Assembly: GCA_001695595.3 (NCBI GenBank)
Contig: MBPM02000002.1
Span: forward strand, 682,001 to 746,000
From: Plasmopara viticola
Lineage: Eukaryota; Oomycota; Peronosporomycetes; Peronosporales; Peronosporaceae
Length of the DNA: 64,000 nucleotides
Direction of reading: 5' to 3'
Part shown: piece by piece, positions 21,929-24,339 of the stretch
Numbering within the stretch: the first letter of the stretch is position 1
Layout: the number at the start of each line of letters is the position of its first letter
Made by a program: the position numbers and the translations under genes
Notes under the pieces: generated by a model
Told to the model about the DNA's origin: nothing
The model's database searches: none
The model's input: only the letters and a program-made list of their open reading frames with translations

Positions 21929-22051
21929 CTATTCCATCAATGAGCACATGAGTGGTACGAAACAGCTGAGAACGACGGAGACGTACTGTTTGCATGTACA
22001 TGCTTGGCACAATACAATACCGTCCAGGCTCGATCGTAGCTTCCACCTACA

Positions 22052-24339
22052 TCAAGCGCTAAGGTCAAGTTGCAAGAAATCAAGTACGATTCGTACCGAC
22101 ACGGCTTGCTTAAAGGTATAGGCGGGTTGCAACACTCCATCGTCGTCAATCATGGGAATGACGGTCCCAGGGATGATCGCCGGTGGAAGCGGCTCCAGTC
22201 GTTGGCCACTTTGATACGCCTCTCCATCCATGGGGCGGTACCTTCGATAGTACGCCATTTGTTTCTTTGGAGGTTCTCGAAGTTCCACCTTGCTTGCGTC
22301 CTTTGCACTGGGAATAAGGGAACAGAGATGAAAGCCAATGGGCACCAATTTACCACCACTGTCGTTGCCACGCGGATCTTCCTGACTCAACGACACGAAG
22401 AGGCGTGCTCGCTGCTCGAGGACGAGCTCAAAGCGCGGGTTGTTCACCCACGTGCTTTGCAGTGGATTCCCTCCACAATTTGCTTCATTCCAACTGCCTT
22501 CTGCCCGTCGACCTTGCCACGAATCGGGAAAATCTAGTCTCAAACCAAGCACAAAGACGAATGAAACCCTTGGAGATTGATCCAAACCCGAATGGCCCTA
22601 CCGATGCCCGCAAAAAAGTGCGTAAACGACGTTCTCCACGCCTCGAACGCCATAAAGAACGTGCCGTCGTTGGCATTGATTTCAATCACGTCTTCTTGCG
22701 CAATCGTCTCCACGCCGACACTTCCGAACGCATTGATGGTCATGAAAATCCGTTTCTCCGCATTGGCCCCCACGTGGCGGCGAATGAGGTGAAAGTATTG
22801 CGCAATCACATCTTCATTCAGCGTCCGTTCCTCGCTCGCATCGGACCATGGCCCCGTCTAGTGGACAGCATCGCTCTCACTTAGTATATACCCCCCCCTC
22901 ATCTTGTCACACGACCGTCTAGCCTTACCCATTCGCCCATGCCCCATGGATTGCGTAGTTTCACGAGACGCACGGCTTGGCCTTTGGACGTGGTGATCTC
23001 GGCGACATCCACGAGCGCGTACGCGTGTTTGAAGTACAAGCCGTTGCCGGCACTCGTTTCCACGGCCCTGTCTTGGCTTGCCGGTTGAATGGAACAGCCC
23101 ATGAGCGTCCCCGCGTCCTTGTAGCGAAGGAGCTTGAGCCAGAACGAGTCTCCGTCTTGCTGCAATGGAGTCACGGGGGCAAACGGATCGTCGTGGTACC
23201 CGGGGAAGCCGTCTTTCAAGATCACTTGTTCCGCACACAGGCCCGTGAGGTCGTTCAAAGCACAGTCAATGAAGCCTCCAATCAAGGCTTCGTAGCTGCC
23301 GTGGAGCTTTGCATACGCCTTTTCCACCAACGACACCCTATCATCATGCACGAGCTCGTTAGCTCTCGAACGTCTCAAGGCTTGCGAATCCGGTTACCAG
23401 AGCTCGTTGGGATTGCGACAGCGAGCAAAGAAGGGTTTTCCTTCTCTATGGTCGCTAAAGCCAAACACTGGCAACCGGTCGTCGATGAGGACGTAATGCC
23501 ATACAAAATTCTAGCCACCATGCACGAGTTACGCAGCCACTAAGCAACGGCTTGCATCTTCAACGAACCTTCATGAACCGGCAAATGAACACGCCCCTTG
23601 TCTTGAAGTGATCGTTGCGCCAGAAGAGCTGTTCCAGCAAGTCAAATCGGGTGGCCACGACACTGAGAGCACCTGCAAGCACAGCGTTGAACATGAGGAC
23701 TCCCCTCCCGCTTGCATTGGTGCTGCAAGGTCTACGTCGTACTCAAGAACCAACAATCGCCGAGATTCCCTTGGATCACGTCGCCAGACGACGCGCCATC
23801 CGCAAAGAGCGTCGCGTTGGAAGCAAACACCGACGCCGTGGCAAGGCGCTCGTCGTCCGCTTCCTCTCGACTGCAAGCAAGCGGTTAATCTGCTCCATCG
23901 ACGAAATGCACGCCTCGTACCTGCTCTCTACTCTGTGCTCTGAAGCATACACTGGTCGTTCCCACCGCAACTTGCCCCGTTCGAGCAATCCACGAACTCT
24001 GGCGCGGTGCTGCGACTCGCCTTTGCTCTTTAGCGCTCCGTTGGCTTGGCACATTGCTGCGACGCCATCGCAATCGTTGCGACACGGCCCAAACGTGGGG
24101 TCGGTAAAGCAATGGGTGGCTGGAGCCGTGTGCAATTGAAGCGCATGGAGGATCTTGGCGTGCAAGACGTGATCCGCGAGTCGCAAGCCGCGAGTCAAGG
24201 CTTGGCCAGCGAGCCCCTTGATCTTGACGGCAAACACGGTATCCTGTCGACTCGAGACGACCGTGATCCCGAGGGCTTGGAGCTCTGCTTGGAGGGAAGG
24301 AAGGTCGACGAGACCGTCATTGGCCAGTGGCGAAAGCAT
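22052..24339 (-). CDS. calpain-type cysteine protease (seven exons)
   Basis: Calcium-type cytosolic protease of family C2. The model is complement(join(22052..22533,22602..22857,22929..23337,23398..23510,23569..23672,23743..23870,23921..24339)), 636 codons, with all phases consistent and introns of 50-71 nt. The catalytic triad is present: Cys179 in GNLGDCWFLS, His359 in LYFKHAYALVDV, and Asn384 in KLRNPWGMGEW. VWHYVLIDDRLP, EKAYAKLHGSYEALIGG and FFMAFEAWRTSFTHFF are also typical. Domain III begins GSWNEANCGGNP and FELVLEQRARLFVSLSQED, but the frame stops after AVSVRIVLD plus eight odd residues, in the middle of the domain. Skipping 28 nt (22051-22078, lying between two CTTGAT copies) would continue the domain as VGGSYDRAWT and, over a 92-nt intron, join the next feature. 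The N-terminal ATG at 24339 is the first in the frame; upstream exons cannot be excluded. Confidence 0.85.

What the first reader, a model, noticed from the sequence alone, without database searches (positions are those of the whole stretch)
21929..22533. Calpain domain III is interrupted by 28 nt; the calpain and the EF-hand/C2/WW protein look like one gene
Seen: the calpain frame (exons 1-7) ends in the middle of domain III at AVSVRIVLD plus LQLDLSA-stop. A 28-nt segment (22051-22078) sits between two copies of CTTGAT. Leaving it out keeps the frame as VGGSYDRAWT, then a GTATTG...AATAG intron of 92 nt in phase 0 leads to DKATGRINVGTF and LSVYSDK, which has the shape of the end of calpain domain III. 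That exon is open and has no ATG of its own, which is explained if it belongs to the calpain. Known: calpains have a protease core and a C2-like domain III. Inference: an about 2,460-residue calpain with C-terminal zinc cluster, EF hands, C2 and WW domains, broken here by a 28-nt insertion or duplication between CTTGAT repeats, or by an assembly error.
Basis: partly seen in the sequence, partly recalled or inferred. Interest (0 to 1): 0.9.

Follow-up and report, generated by a model that had tools for sequence, protein, structure and literature searches.

The report
Ordinary intron misread as 28-nt insertion
A long calcium-dependent protease gene of a downy mildew looked broken because a short intron and a tiny 60-base exon were read in the wrong frame; read with normal splicing it is one intact gene that other oomycetes share, so this is ordinary.

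Summary
The gene is on the minus strand. The 28 nt (22051-22078) lie wholly inside a 50-nt GT-AG intron (22096-22047). A 60-nt exon follows (22046-21987), then a 58-nt GT-AG intron (21986-21929). Nothing but introns is left out: 13 exons and 12 GT-AG introns of 50-80 nt give an open 2,466-aa frame. At least 13 of the exon's 20 residues are kept in 25 of the 28 closest homologues (27 named as oomycetes), 17 of 20 in the nearest. The other three skip the exon or read it out of frame, and are exactly the three of 28 without a listed Calpain_III domain. Sixteen of the 28 align as single proteins over 93-100% of the query. Gap: no RNA reads were seen.

The parts
23921..24339 (-). exon 1 (419 nt), start ATG at 24339
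   Evidence: a tblastn piece of P0001 covers 24339-23926
23743..23870 (-). exon 2 (128 nt), catalytic Cys in GDCWFL
23569..23672 (-). exon 3 (104 nt)
23398..23510 (-). exon 4 (113 nt)
22929..23337 (-). exon 5 (409 nt), catalytic His (YFKHAYAL) and Asn (LRNPWG)
22602..22857 (-). exon 6 (256 nt)
22097..22533 (-). exon 7 (437 nt), first part of calpain domain III, ends ...YTFKQAVS
   Evidence: Pfam Calpain_III
   Evidence: homologues read AVS|VEAT with no residues between
21987..22046 (-). exon 8 (60 nt, phase 0/0), VEATIEPGRYCIVPSMYMQT, core of calpain domain III
   Evidence: BLOSUM62 99 against P0001's peptide, next best 30 among 127,882 six-frame positions; alignment
21929..21986 (-). intron 8 (58 nt, GTACGT...GAATAG, phase 0)
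17295..21928 (-). exon 9 (4,634 nt): end of domain III (GTFWLSVYSDK), cysteine-rich cluster, EF-hand pair, C2-like stretch (weak), possible coiled coil
   Evidence: coiled coil only from sub-threshold Pfam matches
16825..17228 (-). exon 10 (404 nt)
16627..16763 (-). exon 11 (137 nt)
16388..16566 (-). exon 12 (179 nt), most of the WW domain
16187..16307 (-). exon 13 (121 nt), end of WW domain and stop codon

Best explanation
An intact, ordinary 13-exon gene (minus strand, 24339-16187) for a 2,466-aa oomycete calpain: protease core, domain III, cysteine-rich cluster, EF-hand pair, WW. Domain III is encoded by exons 7, 8 and 9; exon 8 is only 60 nt long between introns of 50 and 58 nt. Shown: sequence, open model, homology at the junction. 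Inferred: that splicing uses these sites (no RNA read seen), and that the protein acts as a Ca2+-regulated cysteine protease (Cys, His and Asn motifs and EF hands present, activity not tested).
For: Exon-8 peptide: 17 of 20 identical in P0001 and in 11 of the 15 rows named Phytophthora; at least 13 of 20 in 25 of 28 homologues P0001-P0028. Aligned homologues run AVS|VEATMEPGRYCIIPSMYMRT|DK without extra residues, which places the donor at 22096. In a scan of 127,882 six-frame positions of the window P0001's peptide scores 99 here, the next 30 (mean -21.1, sd 9.1); the Saprolegnia peptide 85, the next 27. Calpain_III rises from 28.1 bits (exon 7 with the next 9 nt, 148 aa) to 39.8 (first donor choice, 212 aa) and 43.7 bits (corrected donor, 202 aa); the two longer pieces also begin in exon 6, so lengths are not equal. 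Both introns are GT-AG and phase 0; GTACGA is also the donor of introns 1, 2 and 12 of this gene, and all 12 modelled introns are 50-80 nt. All 28 homologues list both Peptidase_C2 and EF-hand_7; 21 of 28 list WW; 25 of 28 list Calpain_III, the missing three being P0012, P0017 and P0028. P0012 (P. lilii) contains a 13-mer that fits an out-of-frame reading of the exon-8 peptide (1 of 4,662 position/shift combinations), which suggests that an automatic gene model elsewhere made a similar slip.
Against: No transcript data were seen. Three of 28 homologues lack the peptide (P0012, P0017, P0028), read here as gene-model errors but not proven so. My first donor choice (22087) was wrong by three codons until homologues were aligned; 22087 and 22102 also keep phase 0. 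Introns 7 and 1 are the shortest (50 nt). tblastn bridges the whole junction in one gapped piece (22537-16826, frame of exons 7 and 9) and so does not by itself show exon 8. The homologue search saw only proteins of 0.55 to 1.75 times the query's length, so short calpain-only relatives could not appear.
Confidence: 0.97

Rival explanations
1. One reading: a 28-nt insertion or duplication between CTTGAT repeats, or an assembly error, breaks domain III; the true frame runs VLD-VGGSYDRAWT and a 92-nt intron follows.
For: CTTGAT at both ends of the 28 nt; the exon-7 frame does reach a stop if unspliced.
Against: VGGSYDRAWT has no good counterpart in the six homologues tried (best 6-14); the other frame matches at 85-99. 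The 28 nt lie inside an intron. The assembly appears to be a 185x PacBio one polished with short reads.
Confidence: 0.01
2. Two separate genes: a calpain that ends at LQLDLSA-stop and a downstream EF-hand/WW gene.
For: A stop follows exon 7 if it is not spliced.
Against: 28 of 28 top homologues list calpain core and EF hands in one protein (that search could not see proteins much shorter than the joint model); the exon at 21928 begins in the middle of domain III.
Confidence: 0.01
3. Exon 8 is a real cassette exon: alternative splicing removes 20 residues of domain III in frame (phase 0/0).
For: Models P0017 (exact AVS|DK junction) and P0028 lack it.
Against: P0028 also lacks neighbouring sequence; 25 of 28 include the peptide; the residues are a conserved core. 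That the two are automatic gene-model errors is inference.
Confidence: 0.05

Closest known systems
Oomycete long calpains (P0001 Plasmopara; P0002 Phytophthora nicotianae; P0021 Achlya; P0022 Aphanomyces; P0023 Albugo; P0027 Saprolegnia), under names such as 'cysteine protease family C02' or hypothetical protein in public records
   Same: Calpain core, Calpain_III and EF hands in one protein; 33-56% identity over 94-100% of the query, except P0022 (39% over 53%); same domain III core
   Different: Sequence divergence; no WW listed for P0021 and P0023; the window protein groups with P0001 (100/100 in the 16-row tree)
[quoted passage not shown] PMC10762896, passages seen)
   Same: Calpain core, beta-sandwich domain (type 4), C-terminal WW, oomycetes
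   Different: Here the calpain core is near the N terminus (Pfam 155-402) and EF hands follow; no N-terminal C2 was reported by the Pfam scan; transmembrane prediction was not run
Classical animal calpains (Nter-CysPc-C2L-penta-EF-hand; PMC3563603, passages seen)
   Same: Protease core followed by domain III, then Ca2+-binding EF hands
   Different: One EF-hand pair in a tail of about 1,800 aa, plus WW; Pfam reported no penta-EF-hand family

Membership tests
calpain (Peptidase C2) | CysPc protease core | tested here: met
   PF00648 210.5 bits, E 3.6e-62
calpain (Peptidase C2) | catalytic Cys, His, Asn | tested here: met
   motifs GDCWFL from 177, YFKHAYAL from 356, LRNPWG from 382; their catalytic role is recalled, activity not tested
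calpain (Peptidase C2) | domain III (CBSW) present through its conserved core | tested here: met
   PF01067 43.7 bits, two stretches, cut-off 21, with exons 7-9; best stretch covers profile 2-83 of 137; core seen in the alignment
calpain (Peptidase C2) | Ca2+-dependent proteolysis | not testable with these tools
   needs protein
oomycete calpain/EF-hand/WW protein | EF-hand pair and WW in the same protein | tested here: met
   PF13499 44.6 bits, PF00397 43.9 bits; 28 of 28 homologues list PF13499 with PF00648, 21 of 28 PF00397
C2-domain protein | C2 domain in the tail | tested here: inconclusive
   PF00168 in 3 of 8 members, best E 0.024; for the window's own piece E 0.12, 13 bits against a cut-off of 22; no PDB match at E 1
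insertion or duplication disrupting a gene | extra DNA that is not part of an intron | tested here: not met
   22051-22078 lies inside the GT-AG intron 22096-22047 inferred

The most novel reading that the evidence does not exclude
The 60-nt exon 8 is a regulated cassette: leaving it out keeps the frame but removes the PGRYCIVPS core of domain III, giving a second isoform with altered domain III.
Probability: 0.05. Interest if true: 0.35.

Novelty: already known. Interest (0 to 1): 0.08.

Why it matters
Mainly as a caution: a short exon between two short introns can look like a frame-breaking insertion, and gene models of relatives seem to stumble at the same place: three of the 28 closest public homologues lack both this exon's peptide and a listed Calpain_III domain. 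The gene itself is a conserved oomycete calpain with near full-length public homologues.

Tried and rejected
Positions after exon 7 quoted are therefore 3 higher than in the corrected protein. PDB searches with the domain III piece (E 0.1) and with the C2-like alignment (E 1) found nothing. A phage search of a calpain piece, made as a first look, found nothing and was not informative. The same-genome search with P0001 did not complete, so a second copy was tested only with one DNA piece (1 match, itself) and with PF00648 (7 matches at 6 places, two of them in this gene). As a same-genome comparison, a domain III core pattern was sought in the five other calpain loci (L002-L005, L007): found uninterrupted in 1 of 5, L005 (PPGWYIVLPS); the other four gave no match, and the loci (3.5-4.1 kb) need not reach domain III. 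A literature search for microexons in oomycetes (6 of 15 papers listed) showed no title on this gene. PMC9715676 (passages) mentions calpain family members among proteins identified in P. viticola without naming this one.

Full report
What is there. On the minus strand the seventh exon of a calpain gene begins at 22533 and, unspliced, reads ...YTFKQAVSVRIVLDFLQLDLSA-stop. The three-frame print shows another solution. From 22046 the DNA reads VEATIEPGRYCIVPSMYMQT in a third frame. It is preceded by GTACGA...GATGTAG (22096-22047, 50 nt) and followed by GTACGT...GAATAG (21986-21929, 58 nt), both GT-AG and both phase 0. The next exon begins DKATGRINVGTFWLSVYSDK. The 28 nt lie inside the first of these introns.

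Homologues decide it. Sixteen of the 28 align over 93-100% of the query (lengths 2,271-2,855 aa); the others have lower local coverage or are shorter models. In the alignment most read AVS-VEATMEPGRYCIIPSMYMRT-DK or close to it, with no residues in between. That places the donor at 22096, not 22087 as I first chose. Identity over the 20 residues is at least 13 in 25 of 28. The three exceptions are P0012 (a stretch that fits an out-of-frame reading of the exon: 1 of 4,662 position/shift combinations), P0017 (exon skipped, AVS|DK) and P0028 (exon and neighbours missing). They are exactly the three of 28 whose precomputed domain list lacks Calpain_III. P0009 has four extra residues before DK, and P0020 keeps the exon but lacks much of its surroundings. 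Four more distant rows (P0029, P0032, P0037, P0041) keep, by eye, a recognisable version of the motif.

Chance. Against all 127,882 twenty-residue positions in six frames of the window, the peptide of P0001 scores 99 at 22046 and at most 30 elsewhere (mean -21.1, sd 9.1); that of Saprolegnia 85 and at most 27. CTTGAT is common in this window (61 copies, 40.3 expected).

The gene. The corrected model has 13 exons from 24339 to 16187, 12 GT-AG introns of 50-80 nt, 2,466 residues and a single stop at the end. Four introns (1, 2, 7, 12) share the donor GTACGA. tblastn with P0001 and P0002 supports the exon blocks and the frames on either side but bridges several short introns, this junction among them, so it is no evidence for exon 8. 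Pfam (first model): Peptidase_C2 210.5 bits, EF-hand pair 44.6, WW 43.9, Calpain_III 31.5. On pieces, Calpain_III is 28.1 bits with exon 7, 39.8 with the first donor and 43.7 with the corrected exons; piece lengths differ. The Cys, His and Asn motifs are present. The C2 claim rests on sub-threshold matches (3 of 8, best E 0.024). The cysteine cluster is conserved in 12 of the 13 rows printed (P0010 lacks the stretch); zinc binding is inference. No structure was predicted.

Origin. G000 has 92,937,831 bases in 358 contigs. PMC6660063 (abstract and passages seen) gives 92.94 Mb and 358 scaffolds in the text (359 in the abstract) for the PacBio assembly of Plasmopara viticola, 185x. In the tree (16 rows) the window protein groups with P0001 (Plasmopara) at 100/100. 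The name is therefore likely, not proven.

Literature. PMC3563603, PMC13413365 and PMC10762896 (passages only) describe oomycete calpains, chiefly membrane-anchored ones with C2 and WW. I saw no description of this N-terminal-calpain/EF-hand/WW architecture in those passages; the searches were made, and the papers were not read whole. Public records of the homologues nevertheless carry the combination.

Verdict. One gene: correct. Interrupted domain III: a misread intron. Ordinary.

Noticed in passing
24800-25900 (+): A repeat of about 1.1 kb just upstream of the gene: 41 near-full-length matches in the genome, this one included, at 95-100% identity (a lower bound: 40 of 1,400 first-look candidates were scored). 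Two ORFs in it match no Pfam family at E 0.01. Looks like a recently spread mobile element.
   Followed up: partly
15479-15802 and 37361-37467: Partial copies of the same repeat, in the same orientation (91-96% identity over pieces of 27-154 nt), so the calpain gene has pieces of it on both sides.
   Followed up: partly
L005 (G000:C92:230397-231332): Another calpain of the same genome with the domain III core uninterrupted in a 1,069-codon frame (PPGWYIVLPSTF); L002 has a calpain core in a 2,641-codon open frame.
   Followed up: partly
P0012, P0017, P0028: Public gene models of relatives that skip or misread the 60-nt exon 8 and have no Calpain_III in their domain list.
   Followed up: partly
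26551-27318 (+): Protein with WRKY19-type zinc finger repeats (PF24906, 78 bits).
   Followed up: no
27490-29163 (-): WD40-repeat protein (PF00400, 81.5 bits).
   Followed up: no
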